From assembly GCF_001553455.1 (NCBI RefSeq), contig NZ_BBOX01000030.1, positions 1 through 64,000 on the forward strand: a stretch of 64,000 bases of DNA, in the 5' to 3' direction. This stretch comes from Streptomyces hygroscopicus subsp. hygroscopicus. Its GTDB lineage: Bacteria; Actinomycetota; Actinomycetes; Streptomycetales; Streptomycetaceae. The notes under the pieces were generated by a model. The model worked only from the letters and a program-made list of their open reading frames with translations. It made no database searches and had not been told where the DNA came from. The stretch's first letter is position 1; every line of letters starts with the position of its first letter. Of this stretch, positions 46,172-64,000 are shown in pieces. The position numbers and the translations under genes were made by a program.

Positions 46172-46286
46172 AGAAAACGGCCGAGCCGAAGCCGTGACCG
46201 AATCAGCACCCGGAAGACCTCGTCAACCGAACGCACGCCCCCACGGCAAGCGTTGTCAGGATCTGGGCGCGCCCAAAGGAGTCCGC

Positions 46287-48476: not shown

Positions 48477-48493
48477 CGCGAAGCGCAGACATC

Positions 48494-48540
48494 AACGGGC
48501 TTGCGGCCGACGGCTTCTCTCCGTCGGCCGCAAGCCCGTT
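48494..48540. terminator. Bidirectional terminator between convergent genes
   Basis: A perfect 20-bp stem (AACGGGCTTGCGGCCGACGG and its complement) encloses the loop CTTCTCT. It separates the PL8 stop (48476) from the minus-strand GH130 stop (48553), as expected for convergent transcription. Confidence 0.85.
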
Positions 48541-48552
48541 CAGGTCAGAGGG

Positions 48553-49632: not shown

Positions 49633-49634
49633 AC

Positions 49635-50468
49635 CTAGCCTTTGATCGCGGAGCCGAGGTTGGCGGAAGTGAAGTGGCGCTGGAAGAGCAGGAAGAGGAC
49701 GACGGCCGGCACCGCCAGCACGCAGGCACCGGCGAGCACAGCGCCCATGGGATTGGCCTGGAAGGTGGAATTGGCCTGCGAGAAGTTCGCCAGGCTGACC
49801 GCGAGGGGCTGCATCTCCTGGTCCTTGGTCACCAGGAACGGCCAGAGGAACTCGTTCCACGGGCCGATGAAGGTCACCAGCATGGCTGTGAGAATCGCCG
49901 GGCGCACCAGTGGCACCGCCACGGAGCGCAGGATGCGCAGCTCACTCGCTCCGTCCATGCGCGCCGCGTCGAAGATCTCGCGCGGGATCTGGAGGAAGTA
50001 CTGGCGGAAGATGAGCACGGCGACGGAGTTGATGGCGAACGGCAGGATCATTCCGGCGTAGCTGTCGGCGAGGCCGAAGTACCGCACCACCATCACGTAC
50101 AGCGGGATCATCAGCAGCTGGAACGGGATCGCCTGGACCAGCAGGACGAGCGCGAACACCAGGCCGCGGCCGCGGAAGCGCAGGATCGCCAGGGCGTAGC
50201 CGGCCAGCAGGCCGAAGACCAGCGTGCAGGCCACCACCCCGACCGTCATGATCAGCGAGTTGGCCAGGGCGCCCAGCAGGCTGAACGAGTCGTCGATACC
50301 CGCGAGGTTGTCCAGGGTCAGGTTGCCCGGCTTGGGCAGCAGGCCGCCGAGGCCGGTGTCGCGCTTCTTCTGCAGCGCCCCGATGAGCATGTAGTAGAAC
50401 GGCAGCAGCGCGGCGATGGCGCCGAGGCCGAGCGCGGCGTAGCGCAGGATGCGCAGGGTGCGGGCCAT
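49635..50468 (-). CDS. Carbohydrate ABC transporter permease (MalG type)
   Basis: 277 residues from ATG 50468. Six membrane segments; TM1 is ILRYAALGLGAIAALLPFYYMLIGAL. The EAA loop that contacts the ATPase reads EIFDAARMDGASELRILRSVAVPLVRPAI. The C-terminus FNRHFTSANLGSAIKG-like (LFQRHFTSANLGSAIKG) is standard for MalG/CUT1 permeases. One base separates its start from the stop of the other permease gene. The ATPase subunit is missing here, as in most Streptomyces CUT1 systems that share MsiK. Confidence 0.93.
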   Translation of the reverse strand: MARTLRILRYAALGLGAIAALLPFYYMLIGALQKKRDTGLGGLLPKPGNLTLDNLAGIDDSFSLLGALANSLIMTVGVVACTLVFGLLAGYALAILRFRGRGLVFALVLLVQAIPFQLLMIPLYVMVVRYFGLADSYAGMILPFAINSVAVLIFRQYFLQIPREIFDAARMDGASELRILRSVAVPLVRPAILTAMLVTFIGPWNEFLWPFLVTKDQEMQPLAVSLANFSQANSTFQANPMGAVLAGACVLAVPAVVLFLLFQRHFTSANLGSAIKG

Positions 50469-50469
50469 A

Positions 50470-51489
50470 TCAGTCCCTCTCCATGACGCGCCGGGCGACG
50501 GTCGCGATGATGAGCACGCCGGTGACGAGGATCAGTCCGATGGCGGCCGCGGCATCCGGCTCGCCCTGCTCGATGCCCCGCTGGTACACCAGCAGCGCGG
50601 GGGTGAGCGAGGCGCCGCTCGGGCCGCCGCCGGTGAGCAGGAACGGCTCGGTGAAGATCTGCCCGGCGGTGATGATCGACAGCAGGATGACGAGCGAGGT
50701 GACGGGCCGGACGGCCGGCAGGGTGACGGCCCGGAACGCCTGCCGGCGCCCGGCTCCGTCGGTCAGTGCCGCCTCGTGCAGCTCCTTGGGCACGTTCTGC
50801 AGCGCGGCGAGGTAGAGCAGGACGTAGAACCCGAGCTGTTTCCAGGTGACGTAGACGGCGATGAGCGGCATCACCAGGTGCTTGTTCGCCAGCCAGGACG
50901 GGTCCGGGGCCCAGGGGCCGAGGACCTTGTTGACGGCACCGGAGCCGTTGAACAGAAACAGCCAGACCGCCAGCGTGGCGACCGAGGCCGTCACGTACGG
51001 CACGTAGTACGCCATCCGGAAGAAGCCGCGCCAGTGGGTCGCGGCGTTCAGTGCCGACGCCAGCACGAGCGCCAGCACCACGGTCAGCGGAATGTTGATC
51101 GCCATGAACAACCCGAGGTTGGCGAAGGCGCGCTGGGTCTTCTCCTCCCCGAGGACCTCGGTGAAGTTGTCGAACCCGACGAACGGGTGCGGTACGGAGA
51201 CGCCGGGCGCGGTGAAGAAGTAGTCGTGGAAGGCCATCCATACGCCGACCCCGAACGGGATGATGAACACGACCAGGACGTAGGCGGTGTACGGCGCGGT
51301 CAGGACGAGCCCGAGCGGGCTGTTGCCGAGCCAGCGCTCGAGCCGCGGGGCGCCGGGCCGGCGCCCCGGGATACGGCGTTCGGGTGCGGCTGCCGGCGGT
51401 GCGTGCCGGGTCGATGGCCGGGGACGCCGGCCGCGGGGCGGATCACCTGCGGCCCGGGTCCCATCGCGGCTGCTGCGGAGTGATGTCAT
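50470..51489 (-). CDS. Carbohydrate ABC transporter permease (MalF type)
   Basis: 339 residues from ATG 51489. A basic, proline-rich N-terminal tail (about 55 residues) precedes TM1 (GLVLTAPYTAYVLVVFIIPFGVGVWMAFHDYFF). The EAA loop is VPKELHEAALTDGAGRRQAFRAVTLPAVRPV, and FTEPFLLTGGGPSGASLTPALLVYQ is the usual CUT1 segment before the last helices. It forms the membrane channel with the MalG-type protein. The start lies 11 bases after the binding-protein stop, with GAGG in between. Confidence 0.93.
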   Translation of the reverse strand: MTSLRSSRDGTRAAGDPPRGRRPRPSTRHAPPAAAPERRIPGRRPGAPRLERWLGNSPLGLVLTAPYTAYVLVVFIIPFGVGVWMAFHDYFFTAPGVSVPHPFVGFDNFTEVLGEEKTQRAFANLGLFMAINIPLTVVLALVLASALNAATHWRGFFRMAYYVPYVTASVATLAVWLFLFNGSGAVNKVLGPWAPDPSWLANKHLVMPLIAVYVTWKQLGFYVLLYLAALQNVPKELHEAALTDGAGRRQAFRAVTLPAVRPVTSLVILLSIITAGQIFTEPFLLTGGGPSGASLTPALLVYQRGIEQGEPDAAAAIGLILVTGVLIIATVARRVMERD

Positions 51490-51500
51490 GGTGTGCCTCG

Positions 51501-52799
51501 TCAGTCGGCGATCTGGTCGTCGATCTGCTGCGCGGCCTTGTCAAAGGTCGACTTCACATCGCCCTTCCCGGGCAGCACCGCGTCTTCCCAGGCTGTGCGG
51601 AACGTCTTCCACACCTCGGTCGAACCGGCGATGTTCGGCACGTCCACCGCCCGCGGCACCGCGTCGGCGAAGGGCTGGTAGAAGGGGTTGTCCTTGAGAT
51701 AGCCGCCCGCGACGGCGGCCACGTCACTGCGGGTGGGGAACTGCCCCGTCTTCTCCAGCAGTGCCGCGTCGTTCTTCGCGCTCATCGAGAACTTGGTGAA
51801 TTCCCAGGCGGTCCGCTTGTGCTTGCACGAGGTGAACAGGCCGACGTTCTTGGAGTCCGCGAACGTCGATGTCCTGTCTGCCGGTATTCCCGCGGCCGTG
51901 GGCAGCGGCACCACGCCGTACGTCACCTTGCCGTCGAACTGTCCCTTGCCCCACGGCCCGGCGATGCTCATGGCGGCCACCCCGTCGGCGAACGGGCCCG
52001 CCCACATGTCGCCGCTGTACGCCTCCGGGGACGAGTAGCCGCCTGCGTACATCTGCTGCCAGAAAGCCAGGGTCTGCCGTCCGGCCTGGGAAGTGAAGGT
52101 GGCCTTCTTGTCCCTCACCAGTTGCGTGCCGCCGGAGTTGGCCAGGTACAGCGGATAGAAGTCGAACAGCGCATTGGTGTAGTCACTGGTCGCCGGCGGG
52201 TACAAGGCGAACTTCGCCGCCTTGCTGCTCTTGATCTTCTTCGCCGCGGCCAGTACATCGTCGTACGTGTTCAGCTCCGGATTCTCGGCGTCCAGGCCGG
52301 CCTTTTTGAAGACGTCCTTGTTGTAATAGAGCATGAACGGGTTGGTTTTCCACGGCACTTGATACAGCTTGCCATCCGGGGAACGGAAGCCGTCCACGGC
52401 ACCGCCGGAGCGCTTCTTGATGAAGGACTCGGCATCGCCGAAGGTGTCCGAGAGATTCACCAGGCCGCCCTGCTTCTGGAATGCGGCGACCGCTGCCGGA
52501 GCGGTGTTGTAGAGGAGGCACGGGGTGTTGCCCGCGGTGATCGCGGCCCCGACGACATCTTCGGTGGACTTGCCCGACGGCACCGCCTTGGCGGTGACCT
52601 TCTCCTTGGTGTGCTCGGCGTTCCAGGCGGCCACGGTGGCCTTGGCCCAGGCCTGCTCCTGCTCATTCGTCGAGTACCAGATGTCGATCGGTCCCGAGGT
52701 CGGCTTGCCGCCGCCGGCGTCGCCCGAACCGCAGGCGGACAATGGCAGGACAAGCGCCGCGGCGGCGGCCAGCACCGTAACGCGCGGAGAACGCCTCAT
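51501..52799 (-). CDS. Sugar-binding lipoprotein of the ABC importer
   Basis: 432 residues from ATG 52799 (MRRSPRVTVLAAAAALVLPLSACGSGDAGGG). A lipoprotein signal peptide ends in the lipobox LSAC with lipidated Cys23. The extracytoplasmic-binding family 1 fold shows GPIDIWYSTNEQEQAWAKATVAAWNAEH, GKLYQVPWKTNPFMLYYNKDVFKKAGLD, MSIAGPWGKGQFDGKVTYGVVPLP and SKNVGLFTSCKHKRTAWEFTKF. It is held to the outer membrane face and delivers oligosaccharides to the two permeases. It is first gene of the minus-strand operon, with the AAACCGGTTT operator about 110 bases upstream. Confidence 0.94.
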   Translation of the reverse strand: MRRSPRVTVLAAAAALVLPLSACGSGDAGGGKPTSGPIDIWYSTNEQEQAWAKATVAAWNAEHTKEKVTAKAVPSGKSTEDVVGAAITAGNTPCLLYNTAPAAVAAFQKQGGLVNLSDTFGDAESFIKKRSGGAVDGFRSPDGKLYQVPWKTNPFMLYYNKDVFKKAGLDAENPELNTYDDVLAAAKKIKSSKAAKFALYPPATSDYTNALFDFYPLYLANSGGTQLVRDKKATFTSQAGRQTLAFWQQMYAGGYSSPEAYSGDMWAGPFADGVAAMSIAGPWGKGQFDGKVTYGVVPLPTAAGIPADRTSTFADSKNVGLFTSCKHKRTAWEFTKFSMSAKNDAALLEKTGQFPTRSDVAAVAGGYLKDNPFYQPFADAVPRAVDVPNIAGSTEVWKTFRTAWEDAVLPGKGDVKSTFDKAAQQIDDQIAD

Positions 52800-52908
52800 T
52801 GTGCCCAACTCCCTTCCATGCGGGTGATTGAGGGTCCGAAGCGACTCCCCTCTCGTCGCCGCCGGCCCGCCCCGCCAGAATGATCACCGCGGGGTTACGA
52901 GCGTCATC

Positions 52909-52918
52909 AAACCGGTTT
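52909..52918. promoter_or_regulatory. LacI-type operator of block B, site 2
   Basis: AAACCGGTTT within TCAAACCGGTTTAAT, in the divergent region between the importer operon and the lacI gene. Flanks are the same as site 1 at 46162-46171. Confidence 0.75.
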
Positions 52919-52943
52919 AATATCTAAGCGTCAAGGACGGGTG

Positions 52944-52955
52944 CGAAACGTTTCG
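52944..52955. promoter_or_regulatory. Second LacI-type palindrome near the block B regulator
   Basis: CGAAACGTTTCG is a perfect 12-bp palindrome of the classic LacI/GalR style (central CG step), 69 bases upstream of the regulator's start. It could be an autoregulatory site or belong to a second regulator. Confidence 0.55.
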
Positions 52956-53023
52956 GTAACCTGGGTGGCGCAGTTCTGCCACCCAGCAGCCGTACGTCCC
53001 GAATCAGTGGAAGGCGAGGCGGT

Positions 53024-54121
53024 ATGGTGCGGGGCCAGGACAAAGCGGGTGGATCGGCGGGCGGTTCCCGCCAGGCGATGCCTCCGCCGTCACGCCGGGG
53101 CGGGGGCGGTCGGCCGACGATCGGTGATGTCGCCGCGCTGGCCCAGGTCTCCAAGGCGACGGTCTCCTTCGTCATCAACGACCGCCCCGGGGTCAGCCCG
53201 CAGGCGCGCCAGCGGGTCCTGGACGCGATCGACCAGCTGGGCTGGCAGCCCAACGCCGGCGCCCGGGCGCTCTCCACCAAGCGGTCCCAGACCCTCGGCC
53301 TGGTGATGCGCCGACCGCCGGAACTGCTGAGTACCGACCCGTTCTTCCCGCAGTTCGTCGCAGGCATCGAGACCGGCCTCGCGCCGCTCGGCTACGCGCT
53401 CGTGCTGCAAGTCGTCCCCGACGAGGAAACCGAACGGCAGGCGTATGAGCGGCTGGCCCGTGACGGCCGGGTCGACGGCGTGTTCCTCACCGATCTGCGC
53501 ACCGACGACCCGCGGCCGGCACTCGTGACGGAGCTGGGCATCGACGCACTGATCGTCGGACCACCGCAGCACGGCGGCCAGGTGCCGGCCCTCGGGGTCG
53601 ACGACGGCAGCGGGGTGCGGCGTGCGGTCAGCCATCTGCGCTCACTCGGCCACCGGTGGATCGGACACGTCTGCGGCGCCGCGGGGTTCGTGCACACCGA
53701 GGCCCGGTGCGACGCCTGGCGCGGTGCGCTGGCGGATGCCGGCCTGCCCGAGATCCCACCCGTGGCGGCGGACTTCACCGGCGCGGCCGGCGCCCGGGCC
53801 ACGCATCAGCTGCTGGACCTCGACCGTCCACCGACCGCCATCGTGTACGCCAACGACCTGATGGCCATCGCCGGGATCACCGCCGCGACCAGCCGCGGGC
53901 TGCGGGTCCCCGAGGACCTGTCGGTGGTGGGCTTCGACGACATCCCGCTGGCCGACTGCATCGCGCCACCGCTGACGACGGTGCGCCAGGACGTGCTGAC
54001 CTGGGGACGCGCCGCCGCGCAGGCGCTGGTTTCGCTCACCGAGGGAGGAGAGTTCCAGGCTGCCGAACTCCCGCCGGTGGAATTCGTGGTGCGGGCGAGC
54101 ACCGCACCGCCGCGGAGTTGA
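53024..54121 (+). CDS. LacI-family transcriptional regulator (block B)
   Basis: 365 residues from ATG 53024, with GAAGGCGAGG ahead; ATG 53078 is an alternative start. After a Gly-rich leader the helix-turn-helix reads RPTIGDVAALAQVSKATVSFVINDRPGVSPQARQRVLDAIDQLGWQPNAGARALSTKRSQTLGLV. It is followed by the sugar-binding domain (STDPFFPQFVAGIETGLAPLGYALVLQVV, GVDDGSGVRRAVSHLRSLGHRWIGHVCG, VYANDLMAIAGITAATSRGLRVPEDLSVVGFDDIPLADCIAPPLTTVRQD). It diverges from the ABC operon. The shared operators suggest it controls importer, GH130 and the PL8 lyase together. Confidence 0.94.
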   Translation: MVRGQDKAGGSAGGSRQAMPPPSRRGGGGRPTIGDVAALAQVSKATVSFVINDRPGVSPQARQRVLDAIDQLGWQPNAGARALSTKRSQTLGLVMRRPPELLSTDPFFPQFVAGIETGLAPLGYALVLQVVPDEETERQAYERLARDGRVDGVFLTDLRTDDPRPALVTELGIDALIVGPPQHGGQVPALGVDDGSGVRRAVSHLRSLGHRWIGHVCGAAGFVHTEARCDAWRGALADAGLPEIPPVAADFTGAAGARATHQLLDLDRPPTAIVYANDLMAIAGITAATSRGLRVPEDLSVVGFDDIPLADCIAPPLTTVRQDVLTWGRAAAQALVSLTEGGEFQAAELPPVEFVVRASTAPPRS

Positions 54122-54521: not shown

Positions 54522-54727
54522 GGCGGGAGTGGCGAGCGTTCCGGCTCCGGACGACGCCGCCTGGTACGGCTCACCGCGCACGAGGGGGTGGGGTCGGTGG
54601 CTACGGGCGGTTGGCTCGGTGCGGGACAGTGCCACTCGGACAAGGGGCGGGCGAACCTCTTGCTGATCTCTCGGCTGTGTGCCTCGTCTTCTTCACCGGT
54701 GCGGCCACGATGCGCAACGTGCCTCAC
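54522..54727. other. No recognisable gene
   Basis: No coding frame could be supported between the transposase remnant and the regulatory element upstream of the GMC gene. Confidence 0.35.
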
Positions 54728-54767
54728 AGTGTGCACTCACGCGGGTGAATATTGCCCACCTCGTGCA
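54728..54767. promoter_or_regulatory. Bipartite element, copy 1 (upstream of the first GMC gene)
   Basis: AGTGTGCA, 12 bases, AATATTGCCCACC, then TCGTGCA. The same two blocks with the same 12-base spacer occur at 59846-59885 between pucR and the hisD-like gene. This is a good candidate binding site for the PucR-type regulator. Confidence 0.7.
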
Positions 54768-54926
54768 TGTGCTGAGTATGTCCGACCTCTCTAGCCTCTT
54801 CAGGAACCAGTGCGGGGCAAGGCCGCTCCGGCCTGACGCCCAGCTCCCCACCCCAACACTCGTTTCTTCCCGGCACGCGGATGGCGATGACGCAGGTCGT
54901 CGAGACTGGATTTCCCTGGAGGCGGA

Positions 54927-56507
54927 ATGAACGCGGAATCGTATGACTACATCGTCGTCGGGGCCGGCTCGGCCGGCTGCGCGGTTGCGGCCCGCCTGTC
55001 CGAGGATCCGAACGTCACGGTCGCGCTGATTGAAGCAGGGCCGCCCGCCCGAGGCCGCCTCTTCGAGATCCCCGCGCTTTTCTCGCAGCAGCTCAAGACC
55101 GCATTCGACTGGGACTTCGAGACGGAACCCGAGCCCCGGCTCGGAGGGCGCCGAGCCTACCTGCCCCGCGGCCGGGTGATCGGCGGCACCAGCTCGATGA
55201 ACACGATGCTCTACGTTCGCGGTCACCGCCATGACTACGACACCTGGGAGCGGCTCGGCAACCCGGGCTGGGGCTATGACGATGTCCTGCCGTTCTTCAA
55301 GAAGTCCGAGGACAACGAGCGCGGAGCCGACGACTTCCACGGTGTCGGTGGCCCCCTCGCGGTCAGCGACCCCATTTCGGTTCATCCTCTTCTGACGGCA
55401 TGGGTCGAGGCGGCTCAGGACGCGGGGCACAAACACAACCCGGACTTCAACGGATCCGAGCAGGAGGGCGTTGGCTACCACCAGGTCACGCAGCGAAACG
55501 GCCTGCGCTGCAGCAGCGCCGCAGCGTTCCTGGAGCCGGCCGCGGGTCGCGCAAACCTCACCGTTCTGCCCTCGACGACCGCTCTGCGCATCTGTTTCGA
55601 TGGCAGCCAGGCGGTCGGCCTGGAAGTCGATCACCTGGGAACCGTCCGGACCATCCGTGTCAACCGTGAAATCGTGCTGTCCCTGGGCGCCTACAACTCG
55701 CCCCACCTGCTACTCCAGTCCGGCGTCGGGCCGGCCGACGAACTCTCCGCAGGGGGAATCACCCCCCTGCACGACCTGCCTGATGTCGGCAGGAACATGC
55801 AGGATCACACCGGGTGCTTCCTCAGCTTCTTCAGCCGAACCGAGCCGGTTCTGGGACCGGACACCTCGCGGGAAGAACAGCTCCTGCGCCGGCACGGTAC
55901 CGGCCCGATGGCCTGGAACGAGGTCGGCGGCTTCTTCAGCTCCGGCGACGATGTCCCCGCCCCTGACATCCAAGTTCATGCAGCACTGGGCATCGTCCGT
56001 GACGAAGGTCTTGCCGCGCCACTGGAGCCTGGAATGTCATTCGGTCCTTACGTCGCACGGCCCGCGAGCCGTGGCTCGGTGCGGCTGCGGCATTCCCACC
56101 CCTACGCCAAGCCGCGCATCTTTCACAATTACCTCGACGACGCCGACGACCGCCGGCGGCTGCGAGAGGGCGTCCGTCTGTGCATGCGCATCGCCCGTGA
56201 ACCGAGGCTGACAGCCATGCTGGAATCGGACCTGCGGGCGGCCGCCGACGCCGGACTCGCCCCGGTGTCGGACAGCGACCAGGACATCGACGACTTTATT
56301 CGCACTCAATCGTTCTCCTTCTACCACCCGTCCGGCACCTGCATGATGGGCAAGGTCGTCGACCATGAACTTCGTGTGTACGGGCTCGGGAACGTCCGCG
56401 TGGCAGACACATCGATCATGCCGACACTCGTCACCGGAAACACAAATGCTCCAGCCATCATGATCGGAGAAAAGGCCGCCTCATTCATTCGGGCGTCGAC
56501 CGGCTGA
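54927..56507 (+). CDS. GMC-family FAD oxidoreductase (choline dehydrogenase-like)
   Basis: 526 residues from ATG 54927, with TGGAGGC ahead. The FAD motif YIVVGAGSAGCAVAARLSEDPNVTVALIEAG is at 8-38, the GMC signature 1 PRGRVIGGTSSMNTMLYVRGHRHDYDTWERLGNPGWGYDDVLPFFKKSE follows, and SLGAYNSPHLLLQSGVGPADEL is signature 2. Catalytic His467 (FYHPSGTCMMG) and Asn507 (TGNTNAPAIMIGEKAA) are in place. It oxidises a primary or secondary alcohol with FAD in the cytoplasm. The closest family flavour is choline/alcohol dehydrogenase. It is the first gene of block C and likely controlled through the bipartite element 160 bases upstream. Confidence 0.94.
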   Translation: MNAESYDYIVVGAGSAGCAVAARLSEDPNVTVALIEAGPPARGRLFEIPALFSQQLKTAFDWDFETEPEPRLGGRRAYLPRGRVIGGTSSMNTMLYVRGHRHDYDTWERLGNPGWGYDDVLPFFKKSEDNERGADDFHGVGGPLAVSDPISVHPLLTAWVEAAQDAGHKHNPDFNGSEQEGVGYHQVTQRNGLRCSSAAAFLEPAAGRANLTVLPSTTALRICFDGSQAVGLEVDHLGTVRTIRVNREIVLSLGAYNSPHLLLQSGVGPADELSAGGITPLHDLPDVGRNMQDHTGCFLSFFSRTEPVLGPDTSREEQLLRRHGTGPMAWNEVGGFFSSGDDVPAPDIQVHAALGIVRDEGLAAPLEPGMSFGPYVARPASRGSVRLRHSHPYAKPRIFHNYLDDADDRRRLREGVRLCMRIAREPRLTAMLESDLRAAADAGLAPVSDSDQDIDDFIRTQSFSFYHPSGTCMMGKVVDHELRVYGLGNVRVADTSIMPTLVTGNTNAPAIMIGEKAASFIRASTG

Positions 56508-56521
56508 AAGCATTTATGGAA

Positions 56522-56546
56522 CCCCCTCATAAGCCTTGAGAGGGGG
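56522..56546 (+). terminator. Hairpin after the first GMC gene
   Basis: CCCCCTC (56522-56528) pairs with GAGGGGG (56540-56546) across an 11-base loop, 15 bases after the stop codon. Confidence 0.6.
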
Positions 56547-56624
56547 CTGACCCATGGGTAATCTGGTCCGCCGGTTTCGACACACTGCTCAGCGCACACA
56601 ACGCATGTGAGGGAGTTCTGTTTC

Positions 56625-58208
56625 ATGTCCAGCCCGGTCCGAAAGGACTACACACCTCCGGAGCTCCGGCCCGATGCCCTCGTCTCCGTAGGTGCCGCCG
56701 CAGAGATCAGCACTGATGTCCTGATCATCGGCTCCGGCATGGGCGGTTCCGCTCTGGCCTGGGCGCTGAAGGACTCCGGCCTTGAGGTACTCGTCGTGGA
56801 ACGGGGCAATTTCCTTCCACGTGAGCCCGAGAACTCCCAGCCGGCCGAGATGTACATCCGGGGCCGGTACAAGAACGCCGGTTATTGGTACGACGGCAGC
56901 TCCGGAAAGCCGTTCGCGCCGGGTGTGTACTACTGGGTGGGTGGAAACACCCGTTTCTACGGCGCCATGCTGCCCCGGTTCCGACGCAGCGATTTCACCG
57001 AGGTGGAACACCAGGAGGGCGTCTCGCGCGCCTGGCCGTTCAGCTACGACGACCTGGAGCCCTTCTACACCACCTTGGAGGGTTTGCTCCAGGTGCACGG
57101 GCAGACCGGCGAGGACCCGACCGAGCCGCCGCACTCCAAGCCGTACCCCTATCCCGCACTCGACCATGAACCGGAGATCGAGCGGTTCGCCCGATCGCTA
57201 CGCGGCCAGGGCCTGCATCCGTTCCACACGCCCAACGCCCTGAACGTGGAGACACAGGCCGACCGTGCCGCGGTGACAACGGCCGACGGCTGTCCGGACG
57301 AGACCGGTATGAAGTCCGACGCCGAGAACAGAATCCTGCTCCCCGCGCTGCGCGACGGCGTGAAGATCCTCACCGGTGCGCAGGTCACCCGCCTGATCAC
57401 CTCTCGGGACGGCCACAAGGTCATAGCCGCCGAGGCACGGCACGCGGGCCGTACCGTCCGTATCCACGCCAAGACCTTCGCCGTGGCCGGCGGTGCCGTC
57501 AACTCGGCCGCGCTGCTGCTGCGCTCGGCCGACGACCGGCATCCGCGCGGTCTCGGCAACTCGACCGGGCTGCTGGGCCGCAACTACATGGTCCACAACA
57601 GCACGTTCTTCGTCGGTGTCAATCCGCTGCGGACCAACCCCACGAAGTGGCAGAAGACCCTCGGCATCAACGACTTCTACGAAGCCGGCCCGGGAACACC
57701 CTTCCCGTTGGGCAACCTCCAGATGCTGGGCAAGCTCCAGGCCCCGATGCTCAAGCCCGCGCGCCCGTGGGCACCGAACTGGGCCCTGAAGTTCATGTCG
57801 GCCAGAAGCATCGACATCTATCTGACGACCGAGGACCTGCCCTCCCTGGACAACCGGGTACGGGTGGATGGCGACCGCATCATCATCGACTGGACCCCGA
57901 CCAACCTCGCCCCCCACCACGAACTCGTGCGCCGGGTGACCAGGGCGGTCCGCAAGTCCGGCTATCCGCTGATCTTCACCCAGCGGATGGGTATCGAGAC
58001 CAACTCCCACATGTGCGGAACGGCCGCTGCCGGTCACGACCCGGGGTCGAGCGTGCTCGATCCGATGTGCCGCAGTCACGACATCGACAACCTCTGGGTG
58101 GCCGATTCGTCGTTCTTCCCGTCCTCCGCGGCCCTCAACCCGGCCCTGACGATCGGGGCGAACGCTCTGCGTATCGCGCCGGCCCTGGCCAAGGCGACGA
58201 AGAGCTGA
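56625..58208 (+). CDS. GMC-family oxidoreductase (glucose/gluconate dehydrogenase-like)
   Basis: 527 residues from ATG 56625 (MSSPVRKDYTPPELRPDALVSV), GGGAG 11 bases ahead. The FAD motif is DVLIIGSGMGGSALAWALKDSGLEVLVVERG, then YYWVGGNTRFYGAMLPRFRRSDFTEVEHQEGVSRAWPFSYDDLEPFY and FAVAGGAVNSAALLLRSA. The catalytic His462 (NSHMCGT) and Asn505 (AALNPALTIGANALR) are present. It belongs to the branch with bacterial gluconate/sorbitol-type GMC dehydrogenases and differs strongly from the first GMC protein, so the two probably perform successive or alternative oxidations. It ends 13 bases before the convergent pucR stop. Confidence 0.92.
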   Translation: MSSPVRKDYTPPELRPDALVSVGAAAEISTDVLIIGSGMGGSALAWALKDSGLEVLVVERGNFLPREPENSQPAEMYIRGRYKNAGYWYDGSSGKPFAPGVYYWVGGNTRFYGAMLPRFRRSDFTEVEHQEGVSRAWPFSYDDLEPFYTTLEGLLQVHGQTGEDPTEPPHSKPYPYPALDHEPEIERFARSLRGQGLHPFHTPNALNVETQADRAAVTTADGCPDETGMKSDAENRILLPALRDGVKILTGAQVTRLITSRDGHKVIAAEARHAGRTVRIHAKTFAVAGGAVNSAALLLRSADDRHPRGLGNSTGLLGRNYMVHNSTFFVGVNPLRTNPTKWQKTLGINDFYEAGPGTPFPLGNLQMLGKLQAPMLKPARPWAPNWALKFMSARSIDIYLTTEDLPSLDNRVRVDGDRIIIDWTPTNLAPHHELVRRVTRAVRKSGYPLIFTQRMGIETNSHMCGTAAAGHDPGSSVLDPMCRSHDIDNLWVADSSFFPSSAALNPALTIGANALRIAPALAKATKS

Positions 58209-58221
58209 CGCCGCAAGGCGG

Positions 58222-59829
58222 TCACGTCCGTCGCAGGGCCGGCCTGCGCAGCAGGTCGTGGCCGCGTACGGCCAGTTGCAGCCGCTGCTGGTTGTCGACC
58301 CGGGTGAGGTCGAGGCCGAGAATCTCGGAGAGCCGTTCGAGGCGGTGGTAGAGGGTGCGTCGCTGGACGAAGAGCGCGTCGGCCGCACGCGCCTTGTTGC
58401 CACCGCAGTCGAGGAAGGTGCGCAGGGTGGGCAGCAGCGGGTTCTTCACCAGTGCGTCGTGTTCCAGCAGCGGGCCCAGCTCGTCCTCGACATAACGTCT
58501 GAGCTCGGGGCCTTCGGAGAGCGCCACGAGCAGCCGCAGCGCCCCCAGGTCGTCGAAGTGGCGCACCTCCGCGGTGGTGGCCGCCGCCGCGACAGAGGCG
58601 GCGCTTCGGCTCTGGCGCAGCGCCAGCGGCAGCGCCGCGGGCTCCACGACCCTGCTGATGCCGCCGCGCAGACCGTGCTCGGCCAGGACGGTGCGCACCT
58701 CGGCCGCGTCACCGGGTCCGGACAGGCCGACGACCGCCATGTCGAAGTCCCCGGTGTCGCCCACGATGGCAGGCCGGCCCGACTCCCACAGCAGCCGGGC
58801 CAGGGCGTGGTCCTGGGCCGGTTCGTCGTCCCCCGAGCAGACGGTGACGACGATCAGGTCCCGGCCGCGCAGATCCTGCCCGAGCGCCAGGCCGAGGCTC
58901 ACGAACTTCTCACCCGGGATGTCCCCGAGCAGCAGCCGGTTCAGCAGCGCCGTCTGGCGCTGGGAGGCCCGCGCGCCGCTCTCGCGTTCACTCACCAGCG
59001 TGATCGCCACGGCCGCGGCGGCCCGCTCCAGCGTGCGCAGCTCGGCCGGGCTCGGCTGCACTCCGCCGTGCAGCAGGTGCAGCCAGCCCCATGACTCGCC
59101 CCGCAGGATCACCGGCTGGCGGGCGCAGGGCACGACTTCGCGGAACGACGCCGCCGGCACGTTGGGGACCTCGCGGCCGTGCGTCACGAGGGAGTGGTGG
59201 CGTTCGTGGATGGCCCGGGAGTGCGCGCTCCACTCGTCGACGAGCCGGTCGGCCTCCGGGGTGGCGCCTCCGTACGCGAGCATCTGGTGGGCGACGTCCT
59301 CCAGCACCACGGGCCGCCCGGTTTTGCGGGCCAGTTCCCTGACCACGCCCACGTAGTCCTCGTCGGCCAGCAGCAGGTCCATGAACGCCTGGCTGGTGGC
59401 CTCCTCGGCGATCAGCTGCTTGACGCGCATGCCGACCAGCACCTCGTGGATCTGGGCCGATGTCTCGACGAAGGGGATCTCGTCGGCCAGTCCCACCAAG
59501 GGCAGGCCGACCGCCTCGGCCTCCTCGACAGCGGCCTGCGGCATGGTGTCGAACATGCGCCCGGCCAGCTCGACGACGAGGACGGCCGCGTGGGCGTCCG
59601 CGAGCCGCCGGACGAAGGCCCGCTGCTGAAGCGCCGTGTCGCCCATGCCGAGGCCGGCCGTCAGCAGCATCTCCTGGCCCGTGAGGAAGCGGTGGATGTC
59701 CGGGATCTCCCCGGTGTGCACCCAGCGCACGGGGCGGTCGAGATTGCGCCCTCCGGCGTAGACGCGCACCTCGGTGCGGGTGAACACCTCAAGTTGCAGT
59801 GCGGCGCGAACCGTCAGGACATCAGTCAT
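58222..59829 (-). CDS. PucR-family transcriptional regulator
   Basis: 535 residues from ATG 59829. An N-terminal purine-catabolism (PucR) domain is visible (MTDVLTVRAALQLEVFTRTEVRVYAGGRNLDRPVRWVHTGEIPDIHRFLTGQEMLLTAGLGM, VLVVELAGRMFDTMPQAAVEEAEAVGLPLVGLADEIPFVETSAQIHEVLV). A GAF/GGDEF-like middle follows, then the C-terminal PucR helix-turn-helix (LPTLRTFLDCGGNKARAADALFVQRRTLYHRLERLSEILGLDLTRVDNQQRLQLAVRGHDLL). Usual role: activator or repressor of nitrogen- or purine-related catabolic genes. It is divergent from the hisD-like gene, with the bipartite element between them. Confidence 0.93.
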   Translation of the reverse strand: MTDVLTVRAALQLEVFTRTEVRVYAGGRNLDRPVRWVHTGEIPDIHRFLTGQEMLLTAGLGMGDTALQQRAFVRRLADAHAAVLVVELAGRMFDTMPQAAVEEAEAVGLPLVGLADEIPFVETSAQIHEVLVGMRVKQLIAEEATSQAFMDLLLADEDYVGVVRELARKTGRPVVLEDVAHQMLAYGGATPEADRLVDEWSAHSRAIHERHHSLVTHGREVPNVPAASFREVVPCARQPVILRGESWGWLHLLHGGVQPSPAELRTLERAAAAVAITLVSERESGARASQRQTALLNRLLLGDIPGEKFVSLGLALGQDLRGRDLIVVTVCSGDDEPAQDHALARLLWESGRPAIVGDTGDFDMAVVGLSGPGDAAEVRTVLAEHGLRGGISRVVEPAALPLALRQSRSAASVAAAATTAEVRHFDDLGALRLLVALSEGPELRRYVEDELGPLLEHDALVKNPLLPTLRTFLDCGGNKARAADALFVQRRTLYHRLERLSEILGLDLTRVDNQQRLQLAVRGHDLLRRPALRRT

Positions 59830-59845
59830 GTGCGCATTACCTCAG

Positions 59846-59885
59846 AGTGTGCAGGATCTGCGGCCAATATTGCACACCCTGTGCC
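59846..59885. promoter_or_regulatory. Bipartite element, copy 2 (pucR/hisD-like intergenic)
   Basis: AGTGTGCA, 12 bases, AATATTGCACACC, then CTGTGCC. Outer halves TGTGCA and TGCACA form an inverted repeat, so a dimeric regulator is likely. It is 16 bases before the pucR start and 73 bases before the hisD-like start. Confidence 0.72.
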
Positions 59886-59958
59886 TGTCGCCCCACCCCC
59901 GTGTTTACCCAGACTTCAGGTCGAGCCCGCAGGCACGATCACCTACCAGGAGTGCAGA

Positions 59959-61284
59959 GTGTCCTCATCACGCACAATCATCAAGGCTCCGGCAGCCTCG
60001 GAGCCGACACGGACCAGCCGTCCGGAAATCGTCGAGACCGTCGCGGAGGTCATCGCCGACGTGCGCGCCCACGGCGATGCCGCCGTGCGCCGCTGGTCGC
60101 AGAAGTTCGACCAGTGGAATCCGCCGTCCTTCCGGCTGGGCCCCGACGAGATCGCCGCTGTGGTCTCCTCCGTCCCGGAGACGGTCCTCGACGATCTGCG
60201 GTTCGCCCAGCAGCAGGTCCGCGGCTTCGCCCAGGCGCAGCGGGACTCGCTCACCGACTTCGAGGTCGAGACCCTGCCCGGGGTGTTCCTGGGCCAGCGC
60301 AACATCCCCGTCGGTGCGTCCGGCGCGTATGTGCCCGGCGGCCGCTATCCGCTCACCGCGTCGGCCCACATGACCGTCCTGACGGCCAAGGTCGCCGGTG
60401 TGGAGCGGGTCGCCGCGACGACCCCGCCGGACCGCGGCGCCCCGCCGGCCGTCAGCATCGCCGCGATGCACCTGGCCGGCGCGGACGAGATCTACGTCAT
60501 GGGCGGTGTCCAGGCCGTGGCGGCCCTGGCCCTGGGCACCGAGACGATCGACTCGGTCGACATGTTCGCCGGCCCCGGCAACGCCTACGTGGCCGAAGCC
60601 AAGCGCCAGCTCTTCGGTGAGGTCGGGATCGACCTGTTCGCCGGCCCCACCGAAGTAGTGATCGTCGCAGACCACACCGCCGACCCGTTCGTGGTGGCCA
60701 CCGACCTGCTGTCCCAGGCCGAGCACGGGCCGGACTCTCCCGTGGTCCTCATCACCACCTCCGAGGACGTGGCCACGCGCACCATCGCCTGGGTGGAGAA
60801 ACTGCTGCCGGACCTGCCCACCGGCGAGGTCGCCGGGCGGGCCTGGCGCGACTGCGGCGAGGTCATCGTGGTTCCCACCCTCACCACCGCCTACGACCTC
60901 GCCGACCGGTACGCCAGCGAGCACGTCCAGATCCTCACGGCCGAGCCCCGCGAGGCCCTGCACCGGATGCGCAACTACGGCGCCCTCTTCCTTGGCGACA
61001 AGACATGTGTCGCATACGGTGACAAAGTCATCGGCACCAATCACGTACTGCCCACCCTGGGGGCGGCCCGTTACACCGGCGGTCTCTGGGTCGGCAAGTA
61101 TCTCAAGACGGTGACCTACCAGGAGATCAGGGACGCCGGGGCCAGCGCCCGGCTCGGCGAGATATGCGGCAGGGCGTCCCGCATCGAGAACTTCGAGGGA
61201 CACGCGCGCTCGGCCGACGTCCGCGCCGCGCGCTACGGATCAGCCTCGCTGGACTGGGCCGATTACCCCCTCGACCAGGTCTGA
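59959..61284 (+). CDS. Histidinol-dehydrogenase-family enzyme, catabolic paralogue
   Basis: 441 residues from GTG 59959, with AGGAG six bases ahead. Zn site and catalytic residues of HisD are all present: Gln253 and His256 (SQAEHGPDSP), Glu321-His322 (ASEHVQIL), Asp355 (YGDKVIGTNHVLPT) and His415 (EGHARSAD). The dehydrogenase signature VAGVERVAATTPPDRGAPPAVSIAAMHLAGADEIYVMGGVQAVAALALGTETIDSVDMFAGPGN is intact. There are no other his genes nearby. Related non-biosynthetic HisD proteins, for example the sulfopropanediol dehydrogenase HpsN, oxidise primary alcohols to acids in two steps with NAD. Such a role fits the GMC and transporter neighbours. Confidence 0.9.
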   Translation: MSSSRTIIKAPAASEPTRTSRPEIVETVAEVIADVRAHGDAAVRRWSQKFDQWNPPSFRLGPDEIAAVVSSVPETVLDDLRFAQQQVRGFAQAQRDSLTDFEVETLPGVFLGQRNIPVGASGAYVPGGRYPLTASAHMTVLTAKVAGVERVAATTPPDRGAPPAVSIAAMHLAGADEIYVMGGVQAVAALALGTETIDSVDMFAGPGNAYVAEAKRQLFGEVGIDLFAGPTEVVIVADHTADPFVVATDLLSQAEHGPDSPVVLITTSEDVATRTIAWVEKLLPDLPTGEVAGRAWRDCGEVIVVPTLTTAYDLADRYASEHVQILTAEPREALHRMRNYGALFLGDKTCVAYGDKVIGTNHVLPTLGAARYTGGLWVGKYLKTVTYQEIRDAGASARLGEICGRASRIENFEGHARSADVRAARYGSASLDWADYPLDQV

Positions 61285-61379: not shown

Positions 61380-62990
61380 ATGTCAGCAACAGAGAACGAG
61401 GCGCACACGGCGCCCAGATCCCACCGCGTCCCCCCCTCGGGCGGGACCCCAGGCCTTGTCTCCTCGGCCGAGGACGCGGAACTGCTCGCCGCGCTGGGCT
61501 ACGAGCAGCGCTTCGACCGCAAGGTCAGCCTGTGGGCGAACTTCGCCCTCGGCTTCGTGTACCTCTCGCCCCTCGTGGGCATCGTGTCCCTCTTCGCACT
61601 CGGTCTGTCGACCGTCGGCGGGCCGTCCGTCTTCTGGATAGCCATCGTCGGAGCCGGGCAGTTCCTCGTCGCGCTGGTCTTCGGGGAGGTCGTCTCGCAG
61701 TTCCCGCTCGCCGGCGGGCTCTACCAGTGGGTCCGAAGGCTCTGGAACGGGCGCTACGCCTGGTTCAACGCGTGGACCTACATCTGCTGCATCACCATCG
61801 GCATCACCAGTACCGCGCTGTTCAGCTCGGACTTCGTGGCCAGCCTCTTCGGCGGGACCGCCGATGAGCCGGGCATCAGTTCCACCCCCACCCAGCGCCT
61901 CTGGATCGCGATCGGCATGACCGTCGTCTGTCTGGTCTGCAACTGCTTCGGCACCAGGACACTGGCCCTGATCTCCAAGATCGGGCTCGCCGCGGAACTG
62001 ATCGGCATCGTTCTCGTGGGCCTGTACCTGCTGATCTTCGAGCGGCGCAACTCCGTCTCGATCTTCTTCGAGACCAGCAGCTCCACCCACGACAACTACT
62101 TCATGGCTTTCATCGCCGCCTCACTCGTCGGGCTGTTCCTCTTCTACGGCTTCGAGGCATGCGGCGAGATCGCCGAAGAGGTCCCCAACCCCTCCCGCAG
62201 CATCCCCCGGGCCATGCAGCTGACCGTGGCCGTCGGCGGAGTGGCCGCGCTCCTCGCGTTCGTCGGCTACGCGCTCGCGGCCCCCGACCTGCCCTCGATC
62301 CTCTCGGGCAAGGACGCCAACCCGATCCCGGCGATCCTGCAGAGCTCGGTCGGCACCGTGGGCACGAAGGCGGTGCTCATGGTCAGCATCACCTCCTTCA
62401 TCGCGGGCGTCATGAGCCAGCAGGCCGCTGCGAGCCGGATCGTCTTCTCCTTCGCCCGCGACGACATGTTCCCGGGCTCCCGAGTCTTCTCGCAGATCTC
62501 CCGCAAGCACCGTGTCCCCCTGAACGCACTGCTGGCCGTGAACGTCGTTCCCCTGGCGATCTTCGTGTTCGTGTACTACTCGCCCGATTCGCTCACCAAG
62601 ATCGTGGCCTTCCAGATGCTGGCCGGATACGCGGCCTTCATGATGGTGGTGCTCGCCGCGCTGCGGATGCGCCTGAAGGGATGGCGTCCCGCCGGCGCCT
62701 GGACCCTCGGCCGCTGGGGATTCGTGGTCAACGTGGCGGCCCTGGCCTACGGCGTCCTCGGGATGGTTCTGCTCGCCTGGCCCACCGGCGACGCCGGAAC
62801 CCCGCTCCTGGACCGGTGGATCGCGCTGATCGGCTTCCTCGTCGTCTCGGTCGTGGGCCTCGTCTACTTGCTGGCCGGGAAGCCCGAGCGCAAGTCCACC
62901 GCACCGGAAGGTGACGCCCTGGAGATCGCCGAGCAGCTGCGCGCCCGCGCCGCGGCCCTCACGCCCACCACCGGAGGGAACATCGTATGA
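61380..62990 (+). CDS. APC-superfamily amino acid/amine permease
   Basis: 536 residues from ATG 61380. About 12 membrane segments; the first (ASLWANFALGFVYLSPLVGIVSLFALGLSTVGGPSVFW-like) and the consensus regions VFGEVVSQFPLAGGLYQWVRRLWNGRYAWFNAWTYICC and FYGFEACGEIAEEVPNPSRSIPRAM are typical of APC/AAT permeases of the GABA/choline-like branch. GFEACGEIAEEVPNP is the segment that faces the substrate pocket in LeuT-fold carriers. Likely imports an amine or amino-alcohol with protons. It overlaps the ThuA-like gene by four bases. Confidence 0.92.
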   Translation: MSATENEAHTAPRSHRVPPSGGTPGLVSSAEDAELLAALGYEQRFDRKVSLWANFALGFVYLSPLVGIVSLFALGLSTVGGPSVFWIAIVGAGQFLVALVFGEVVSQFPLAGGLYQWVRRLWNGRYAWFNAWTYICCITIGITSTALFSSDFVASLFGGTADEPGISSTPTQRLWIAIGMTVVCLVCNCFGTRTLALISKIGLAAELIGIVLVGLYLLIFERRNSVSIFFETSSSTHDNYFMAFIAASLVGLFLFYGFEACGEIAEEVPNPSRSIPRAMQLTVAVGGVAALLAFVGYALAAPDLPSILSGKDANPIPAILQSSVGTVGTKAVLMVSITSFIAGVMSQQAAASRIVFSFARDDMFPGSRVFSQISRKHRVPLNALLAVNVVPLAIFVFVYYSPDSLTKIVAFQMLAGYAAFMMVVLAALRMRLKGWRPAGAWTLGRWGFVVNVAALAYGVLGMVLLAWPTGDAGTPLLDRWIALIGFLVVSVVGLVYLLAGKPERKSTAPEGDALEIAEQLRARAAALTPTTGGNIV

Positions 62991-63655
62991 CCCGCGTTCT
63001 GTACCTGTACGGAGGCTGGCCGGGGCACAAGCCCTACCAGGTCGCCGAGGAATGGGCCGTGCCGATCTTCAGGGACCTGGGCTTCGACGTCGACGAGACC
63101 AACGACATCTTCGCGCTCGACGCCGACCTCACCGGCTACGACCTCATCGCGCTCAACTGGAACAACGCCCTCCTGTCCGAGGGGCTGACAGCCGCCCAGG
63201 AGGCGAGTCTGCTGGGGGCAGTGGAGGCCGGCACCGGGATCGCCGCCTGGCACGGCGCTGCCGCCGCGTTCCGGACGAGCCTGAAGTACCACTGGCTGAT
63301 CGGCGGCAGCTTTCTCGAACACCCCGCGGGCGAAGGCGTGAAGTACCCCTACCAGGTCACCGTCACGGACACCGGCCACCCGATCACCGACGGCGTGAAG
63401 GATTTCCAGGTCGCCTCCGAGCAGTACTACATGTCCGTCGACCCCAACAACCACGTCCTCGCGGAGACCACCTTCACCGGTGAGCACCTGCCCTGGCTGG
63501 AGGGCCGGACCATCCCGCAGGCCTGGACCCGCACCTGGGGACAGGGCCGTGTCTTCTACAGTGCGGTCGGACACGACCTCGACGACCTGCAGAACCCGGA
63601 CGTCACCCGGCTGTGCGCGCAGGGCTTCGCCTGGGCCGCCCGCCGGGGCGCCTGA
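62987..63655 (+). CDS. ThuA-like domain protein
   Basis: 222 residues; ATGA overlap with the permease gene. The trehalose-utilisation (ThuA) fold is evident: MTRVLYLYGGWPGHKPYQVAEEWAVPIFRDLGFDVDETNDIFALDADLTGYDLIALNWNNALLSEGLTAAQEASLLGAVEAGTGIAAWHGAAAAF, then GVKYPYQVTVTDTGHPITDGVKDFQVASEQYYMSVDP and the terminal TWGQGRVFYSAVGHDLDDLQNPDVTRLCAQGFAWAARRG (compare the usual GRVFYTALGH). Family members are glutamine-amidotransferase-like and often accompany sugar dehydrogenase pathways. The biochemical role is open. No signal peptide, so cytoplasmic. Confidence 0.9.
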   Translation: MTRVLYLYGGWPGHKPYQVAEEWAVPIFRDLGFDVDETNDIFALDADLTGYDLIALNWNNALLSEGLTAAQEASLLGAVEAGTGIAAWHGAAAAFRTSLKYHWLIGGSFLEHPAGEGVKYPYQVTVTDTGHPITDGVKDFQVASEQYYMSVDPNNHVLAETTFTGEHLPWLEGRTIPQAWTRTWGQGRVFYSAVGHDLDDLQNPDVTRLCAQGFAWAARRGA

Positions 63656-63693: not shown

Positions 63694-64000
63694 ATGCCTG
63701 TCCTCACCGGAGGCCAGATCGTTGCGCGGACCCTGCGCAACTACGGAGTCGACTACGTCGCCGGCATTCCCGGCCACGGCATCTGGTCGCTGACCGACGC
63801 CTTCCTCGACGACGAATCCAAGATTCCCTTCATCCAGACCTTCCACGAGCAGAGCGCCGTCCACCTCGCGGACGGCTACTACCGGGTCACCGGCCGCCCG
63901 CAGGCCGCGGTGACCTCCATCGGCGCCGGCGCCAGCAACACCGTCATCGGCATGGCCACCGCCTTCACCGACTCCACCAGCGTCCTGGTCATCACCGGCG
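63694..64000 (+). CDS. ThDP-dependent enzyme, N-terminal part (runs off the window)
   Basis: From ATG 63694 (MPVLTGGQIVARTLRNYGVDYVAGIPGHGIWSLTDAFLDDE), with GGGAG ahead. The pyrimidine-binding domain of acetolactate synthase/benzoylformate decarboxylase-type enzymes is visible: the conserved catalytic Glu is in FHEQSAVHLADGYYRVTGRPQAAVTSIGAGASNTVIGMATAF. The rest is outside the window, so the substrate (2-oxo acid decarboxylase, carboligase or IolD-like hydrolase) is undecided. It continues the block C operon 38 bases after the ThuA-like gene. Confidence 0.88.
   Translation, partial: MPVLTGGQIVARTLRNYGVDYVAGIPGHGIWSLTDAFLDDESKIPFIQTFHEQSAVHLADGYYRVTGRPQAAVTSIGAGASNTVIGMATAFTDSTSVLVITG

What the first reader, a model, noticed from the sequence alone, without database searches (positions are those of the whole stretch)
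54728..59885. Identical bipartite element at two promoters of block C
AGTGTGCA, 12 bases, AATATTGC(C/A)CACC and GTGC recur with the same spacing 160 bases before the first GMC gene and between pucR and the hisD-like gene. This looks like a new binding motif of a PucR regulator and ties both flanks into one regulon.
Basis: seen in the sequence. Interest (0 to 1): 0.68.

Follow-up and report, generated by a model that had tools for sequence, protein, structure and literature searches.

The report
Operator of a PucR catabolic regulon
The repeated DNA motif is real and is most likely the docking site through which a PucR-type regulator switches on a small set of breakdown genes in soil bacteria; the same site, followed by a promoter box at a fixed distance, stands before these genes in related bacteria.

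Summary
The motif occurs exactly twice in the window, and its core, up to 2 mismatches, nowhere else in the 9.46 Mb genome. It is larger than described: half-sites TGTGCA-N17-TGCACA-N3-TGTGC, then 20-21 bases to a -10-like hexamer (64 of 65 elements). AATATT is not part of the general consensus. The element precedes the HisD-like gene in 22 of 22 pucR loci; 19 of these also have GMC-directed copies. In 13 loci one dyad-symmetric copy points both ways. Among 392 same-genus genomes, copies of at least 35 bits lie only in the six with a PucR orthologue and in one with a 50% homologue, there far from pucR. Diverged copies precede the HisD-like gene of 50% PucR relatives, even about 5 kb from pucR. 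Best explanation: a PucR operator overlapping the -35 region, activating the hisD, GMC1 and GMC2 units. PucR binding, activation and effector are inferred. A new member of a known kind, well supported for in-silico evidence.

The parts
59843..59888 (+). Element of the hisD-like promoter (also overlapping the pucR leader): left half-site GTGTGCA 59847-59853, inner arm AATATTGCACAC 59866-59877, tail TGTGCCTGTC 59880-59889
   Evidence: mean majority identity 0.98 in arms and tail versus 0.72-0.79 in spacers over 19 sequences
59910..59915 (+). Predicted -10 hexamer CAGACT of the hisD-like operon, 21 bases after the tail
   Evidence: hexamer at offset 20 or 21 in 64 of 65 elements
54725..54770 (+). 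Element of the GMC1 promoter: left half-site GTGTGCA 54729-54735, inner arm AATATTGCCCAC 54748-54759, tail CGTGCATGT 54762-54770
   Evidence: scored 38.5 by a matrix not trained on it (maximum of 60 simulated sequences 1.3)
54792..54797 (+). Predicted -10 hexamer TAGCCT of GMC1, 21 bases after the tail
54927..56507 (+). GMC1: GMC oxidoreductase, choline-dehydrogenase-like, predicted regulon member
   Evidence: Pfam PF00732 and PF05199; NCBIfam scores below the choline dehydrogenase cut-offs
56625..58208 (+). GMC2: GMC oxidoreductase near glucose and fructose dehydrogenase large subunits; no R1 element of its own in the window, so predicted to be read from the GMC1 promoter here (ORF tool start 56607; 56625 is my choice by comparison with L082)
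58222..59829 (-). pucR: PucR-type regulator (PucR N-terminal domain, HTH_30; GGDEF-like region below cut-off), proposed binder
59959..61284 (+). HisD-superfamily dehydrogenase, first gene of the divergent operon (GTG start chosen by me); nearer to HpsN than to HisD but lacks HpsN His126
61380..62990 (+). APC-type permease, predicted operon member (start chosen by me; ORF tool start 61164)
62987..63655 (+). ThuA-like protein, predicted operon member
63703..64000 (+). Start of a thiamine-diphosphate enzyme (acetolactate synthase-like) that runs on past the window (start chosen by me)
   Evidence: L026:3703-5478

Best explanation
The element is the operator of the PucR-type regulator encoded at 58222-59829. 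PucR oligomers contact TGTGCA half-sites: one distal half-site, and an inner/outer pair TGCACA-N3-TGTGC next to the promoter. The outer half-site (the tail) overlaps the -35 position of a promoter that has a recognisable -10 but no good -35, so PucR most likely activates transcription from the -35 side when its unknown effector is bound. Targets are the hisD-like/permease/thuA/TPP operon and GMC1 (with GMC2 behind it here). At the hisD side the distal half-site begins 17 bases upstream of the pucR start codon, so binding probably also limits pucR expression. Shown: sequence, conservation, geometry, gene association, specificity in the genomes searched. Inferred: PucR as the binder, activation, autoregulation, effector control.
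For: Two exact copies in the genome. Model R1 finds 56 elements of at least 36 bits in the window and 21 pucR loci (38 of the 56 trained it): hisD-directed in 22 of 22, GMC1-directed in 17, GMC2-directed in 17. In L023, where pucR and hisD are co-directional, the element sits directly before hisD. Arms, tail and -10 region 0.97-0.98 conserved, spacers 0.72-0.79. The -10 hexamer is 20 or 21 bases after the tail in 64 of 65 elements; background 0.0025 per position. In 392 same-genus genomes 19 hits of at least 35 bits fall in the 6 genomes with PucR of at least 84% identity and in G096 (50% PucR); the next hit is 23.1 bits. G096 has pucR+hisD, GMC2-permease-ThuA-TPP and GMC1 at three distant places, two with an R1 hit and the hisD one with a matrix hit. 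In 8 sister loci (43-53% PucR) the best matrix hit of the whole locus is just before hisD in 6 of the 7 that have hisD, 0 of 100 simulations as good. Class-wide, 2 of 296 genomes hit at E up to 0.002, both with PucR. The predicted recognition helix QRRT(L/V)Y(H/Y)R is kept in the 11 orthologues and the 6 element-bearing sisters aligned there, not in three other paralogues of G096. GabR and MabR, PucR-type activators, bind inverted repeats.
Against: No binding or expression data. Motif and pucR are mostly linked, so co-occurrence partly reflects shared descent; at least two genomes (G183, G222) have contig lengths equal to those of training loci L009 and L016, so that search tests specificity more than recall. 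G357 and G372, with 50% PucR, have no strong R1 hit; R1 found none of the three sister sites it was tried on, L084-L086; R2, which finds them, was trained on them. L093's copy is not significant alone (23 of 100) and L101 misses the hexamer rule. L102, with a 43-46% PucR that keeps QRRTLY, has no element. The right-half pattern alone is not specific (310 of 392 genomes at up to 1 mismatch), and 260 of 392 have some weak R1 hit at E up to 0.5. The hisD leader outside the element is also fairly conserved (0.89). No transcription start is mapped.
Confidence: 0.8

Rival explanations
1. Same operator, opposite sign: PucR is a repressor that occludes the -35 region and is released by a pathway intermediate.
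For: The tail overlaps the -35 position, and one end of the element overlaps the pucR leader, which fits occlusion.
Against: The PucR-type regulators named in PMC7652997 are activators except B. subtilis PucR, which does both (passages); MabR activates (PMC5541348 passages). A promoter with a -10 but a poor -35 and a fixed operator-to--10 distance is, from general knowledge, typical of activator dependence.
Confidence: 0.15
2. Another DNA-binding protein (for example the DeoR- or LacI-type regulator nearby, or a trans-acting global factor) binds the element.
For: A DeoR-type gene lies beside GMC1 in many loci and a LacI-type gene at 53024-54121 lies left of GMC1 in the window.
Against: DeoR is not found by tblastn in L018, L020 and L023 or in the eight sister loci; a global factor should leave strong sites at unrelated genes, but the 13 genomes have 1-3 strong sites each, all at these genes. 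Genes outside the shared clusters were not all annotated, so another regulator is not fully excluded.
Confidence: 0.07
3. The tail and the hexamer are simply the -35 and -10 of a promoter read by an alternative sigma factor; the left half-site is incidental.
For: Fixed 17-18 base spacing from a hexamer beginning at the TGT end of the tail to the -10-like hexamer (follows).
Against: At the hisD side the left half-site 23 bases away is conserved as strongly as the tail (0.98 each), and symmetric copies exist. Sigma genes were not searched for.
Confidence: 0.04
4. Shared descent of two duplicated promoters without function, or chance.
For: The two window copies share AATATT, which most other GMC sites lack.
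Against: Copies across two families and selective conservation of arms against spacers.
Confidence: 0.01

Closest known systems
GabR of Corynebacterium glutamicum (PucR-type)
   Same: Divergently encoded PucR-type activator of a catabolic operon; binds inverted repeats between -87 and -23; two sites needed for strong binding (PMC7652997: passages and section 19)
   Different: GabR lacks the GGDEF-like domain; its site is two 21-bp repeats at one promoter; here one three- or four-half-site element stands at two or three promoters. The GabR repeat sequence was not seen, so the motifs were not compared
MabR (Rv2242) of Mycobacterium tuberculosis
   Same: PucR-type activator binding a palindrome; dimers and tetramers; HTH spacing suits adjacent major grooves (PMC11617747 and PMC5541348 passages)
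   Different: Operator TTTTGT-N9-ACAAAA, not enriched in the window (3 hits, all with 3 mismatches, 1.37 expected); N-terminal globin-like domain; mycolic acid genes
AdeR and PutR of Bacillus subtilis
   Same: PucR-type activators with inverted-repeat sites of 24 and 17 bp (as stated in PMC7652997)
   Different: Their site sequences were not seen here; AdeR NCBIfam model matches far below cut-off (48.9 of 700 bits)
PmfR of nicotine-degrading Arthrobacter
   Same: Best NCBIfam match of the window PucR
   Different: 66.2 bits against a cut-off of 800: not an equivalogue; its site was not read here

Membership tests
PucR-type transcription regulator (the encoded protein) | PucR N-terminal domain and C-terminal HTH_30 | tested here: met
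   PF07905 110 bits (cut-off 33.5), PF13556 68.2 bits (cut-off 27)
PucR-type transcription regulator (the encoded protein) | GGDEF-like middle domain (in about half of the family, PMC7652997 passage) | tested here: inconclusive
   PF17853 21.8 bits, below its cut-off of 24.5
PucR-type operator | Inverted repeat in the promoter of the regulated, often divergent operon | tested here: met
PucR-type operator | Position upstream of or over the -35 region | tested here: inconclusive
   Fits the predicted -10 (64 of 65 elements), but no start is mapped
PucR-type operator | Physical binding by the PucR protein | not testable with these tools
   Needs a gel shift or footprint
MabR operator | TTTTGT-N9-ACAAAA | tested here: not met
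   no match with fewer than 3 mismatches in the window
HpsN (DHPS-3-dehydrogenase), for the HisD-like gene | His126 at the sulfonate site (PMC11382572 passages) | tested here: not met
   Aligned residue is Leu (GGRYPLT against AGRYAHI; chain numbering is one off the paper's); the Asp-Lys pair is kept
Histidinol dehydrogenase HisD, for the HisD-like gene | NCBIfam TIGR00069 above cut-off | tested here: met
   440.9 against 243.8 bits, although PDB similarity is higher to HpsN (389 against 258 bits)

The most novel reading that the evidence does not exclude
A direction-coding operator: a symmetric PucR element becomes a one-way or two-way switch according to whether the outer half-site (tail) is present on one or both sides. 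One PucR assembly on the four-half-site dyad fires two divergent promoters, and evolution redirects the regulon by adding or losing a 9-base tail. It controls an undescribed catabolic pathway with a third kind of HisD-superfamily dehydrogenase.
Probability: 0.4. Interest if true: 0.6.

Novelty: new member of a known kind. Interest (0 to 1): 0.45.

Why it matters
According to PMC7652997 (passages) only a few PucR-type regulators had been studied by 2020. This element gives a precise consensus with symmetric and one-way natural variants, a predicted activation geometry, and a small regulon of one to three strong sites per genome, which makes the PucR mechanism directly testable. It also marks out a conserved catabolic gene set in actinobacteria whose substrate is unknown.

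Tried and rejected
Right-half pattern alone at up to 1 mismatch: 310 of 392 genomes hit, the reversed control is also frequent, and one recurrent unrelated sequence appears, so it cannot define the regulon. A first own-genome pattern used a 13-base spacer by my counting error and found one chance hit, with one in the reversed control; corrected. DHPS catabolism as the pathway: weakened, because His126 of HpsN is absent. MabR-type site: not seen. Plasmid and viral collections: no relatives of PucR found. The region between GMC1 and GMC2 folds no better than shuffles (z -0.55). Literature: no held paper has both PucR and histidinol dehydrogenase or both PucR and GMC oxidoreductase; in the listings no title or abstract start shown concerned this element. 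Of those papers I saw passages of PMC7652997, PMC11617747, PMC5541348 and PMC11382572 and section 19 of PMC7652997; none was read whole. Subscription papers are mostly not in the library.

My gene calls are rough (GC3-based) and several starts are wrong; gene identities in the report rest on tblastn and on Pfam for representatives. The -10 hexamer class was defined after seeing the elements, and related sequences are not independent. The 21 loci come from 20 genomes (L005 and L013 share one strain).
Full report
THE OBSERVATION. The two copies are real, on the same strand, at 54728-54766 and 59846-59884. The 33-base pattern is not expected by chance in 64 kb (0.00 in 100 shuffles). In the whole 9.46 Mb genome the core has two exact copies; the only further hits at up to 3 mismatches are the 59847 copy read on the other strand, because it is palindromic, and one unrelated place; the reversed control has none. 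A mis-spaced version of the pattern found one chance hit and one in the reversed control.

ANATOMY. Read as half-sites, the element is TGTGCA-N17-TGCACA-N3-TGTGC (0 mismatches at 59848, 2 at 54730; 0.06 matches expected at up to 3 mismatches). The distal half-site and the tail are direct repeats 32 bases apart, about three helical turns; inner arm and tail form a close palindrome. After the tail come 21 bases and a -10-like hexamer: CAGACT at 59910 and TAGCCT at 54792. I see no good -35; its place is taken by the tail. Over 19 aligned pucR-hisD intergenic sequences, mean majority identity is 0.98 in the left arm, inner arm and tail and 0.97 in the -10 region, against 0.79 and 0.72 in the two spacers, 0.78 in the pucR leader, 0.89 in the hisD leader and 0.95 around the hisD ribosome site.

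CONSERVATION. Twenty-one pucR loci from 20 genomes (71-95% identity by best segment; Streptomyces, Amycolatopsis and one record named only as an actinobacterium) were fetched. A matrix trained on 19 hisD-side sites scores the window GMC1 site, not in training, at 38.5; the maximum in 60 simulated sequences is 1.3. A sequence-only covariance model built on 38 elements finds 56 elements of at least 36 bits in the window and these loci: 22 hisD-directed (22 of 22 loci), 17 GMC1-directed (in L014 the GMC1 gene itself is not found) and 17 GMC2-directed; the remaining 14 hits are at most 17.4 bits, 13 of them the hisD site read on the other strand. L018, L020 and L023 have only the hisD element. In L023, where pucR and hisD run in the same direction, the element is directly before hisD, not before pucR, so the regulated unit is the hisD operon.

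PROMOTER DIRECTION. Of 65 elements examined (the 56 plus nine from G096 and sister loci), 64 have the hexamer [TCG]AGN[CG]T at offset 20 (37) or 21 (27); L101 is the exception; background is 0.0025 per position. The class was defined after inspection and the sequences are related, so this describes a constraint rather than giving a p-value. In 13 loci one element lies between GMC2 and a divergent GMC1 (GMC1 lost in L014), with tails and -10 hexamers on both sides. These are self-complementary at 30-38 of 53 positions; random stretches at 15.1 (sd 4.8, maximum 34 of 2000); ten one-way elements at 14-32, the window hisD element being the 32. Tail presence therefore goes with promoter direction. 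In the window and L005, GMC1 and GMC2 are in tandem and a single element stands at the head.

SPECIFICITY. In 392 same-genus genomes a PucR of at least 84% identity occurs in six and one of about 50% in three, G096, G357 and G372. The model's 19 hits of at least 35 bits fall in those six and in G096; the next is 23.1 bits; 260 of 392 genomes have some weak hit at E up to 0.5. G183 and G222 have contig lengths equal to those of training loci L009 and L016, so this tests specificity rather than recall. G096 has no PucR above 50% and one HisD-like gene of 75% beside that PucR. Its other pathway genes lie elsewhere: GMC2-permease-ThuA-TPP at C6:7.90 Mb and GMC1 at C1:0.92 Mb, each with the element. 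The element thus stays with the pathway genes in trans to pucR. In a class-wide sample 2 of 296 genomes hit at E up to 0.002, both with PucR; stricter filters may have lost weak copies, and whether G752 was drawn is not shown.

SISTER SYSTEMS. PucR relatives of 43-53% identity in this genus and in a genus of another family were taken as eight loci; seven have a HisD-like gene of 71-76%. Scanned with a matrix of the earlier elements, the best hit in the whole locus is just before the HisD-like gene in L084, L085, L086, L100, L101 and L103 (0 of 100 simulations as good); in L093 the right place ranks third and is not significant alone (23 of 100); L102, without a HisD-like gene, has none. In L093, L100, L101 and L103 that gene is about 5 kb from pucR. 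R1 missed the sister sites L084-L086; R2, built with the sister sites, finds 26 sites of at least 27.9 bits in 13 chosen genomes, many of them in its training set, and nothing else above 18.3.

WHY PucR. PucR is found by tblastn in each of the 21 loci and the eight sisters. In the rough clustering (at least 40% identity) no second regulator cluster spans all loci, but unshared genes were not all annotated. DeoR is not found in L018, L020, L023 or the sisters. The predicted recognition helix QRRT(L/V)Y(H/Y)R is kept in the window protein and ten orthologues aligned and in six element-bearing sisters (L086 could not be aligned there), and differs in three other paralogues of G096; L102 keeps QRRTLY without an element, so the helix alone does not decide. 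PucR-type regulators named in PMC7652997 are activators, B. subtilis PucR being both; GabR binds inverted repeats at -87 to -23 and is an octamer (passages and section 19). MabR is an activator with a palindromic site and forms dimers and tetramers (PMC5541348 and PMC11617747, passages).

MECHANISM. Most likely PucR activates from a site overlapping -35 at the hisD-like operon, GMC1 and GMC2, with an unknown effector, and limits its own expression because the half-site begins 17 bases from the pucR start. This mechanism is inference. The gene set is catabolic in character: a HisD-superfamily dehydrogenase nearer HpsN than HisD (389 against 258 bits) but without HpsN's His126, a thiamine-diphosphate enzyme, two GMC oxidoreductases, a permease and ThuA. 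The substrate is unknown.

VERDICT. A real, conserved and, in the genomes searched, highly specific operator of a PucR-type regulon; new as a member, not as a kind. The direction-coding tail is its most interesting aspect.

Noticed in passing
59959-61284: The 'hisD' gene is a HisD-superfamily enzyme nearest in the PDB to sulfopropanediol dehydrogenase HpsN but lacking HpsN's sulfonate-binding His126: possibly a third substrate class.
   Followed up: partly
56508-56624: The gap between GMC1 and GMC2 holds an inverted repeat and a degenerate GCACACAACGCATGT at 56594-56608, perhaps the remnant of GMC2's own element; R1 does not score it.
   Followed up: partly
L085:9700-9745, L086:9580-9625, L084:9957-10002: A second, looser element lies beside pucR in three sister loci (matrix 13.3, 13.3 and 6.9; 1, 0 and 28 of 100 simulations as good); its target was not worked out.
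   Followed up: partly
L101:8047-8099, L093:8712-8764: Element-like sequences between the TPP gene and pucR in the other genus (0 of 100 simulations as good in L101, 7 of 100 in L093) suggest that pucR/TPP may also be a target there.
   Followed up: partly
L014:11282-12561: L014 keeps the GMC1-directed half of the shared element and, by eye, a GMC1-like start, but GMC1 itself is not found by tblastn.
   Followed up: no
window 46194-54121: Left neighbours look unrelated: polysaccharide lyase family 8, GH130 phosphorylase, ABC permease, LacI regulator.
   Followed up: no
e.g. L029, L030, L035: A recurrent sequence ATGGCACAATCTGTGCATG turns up in many genomes of the genus, apparently unrelated to this regulon; not examined.
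   Followed up: no
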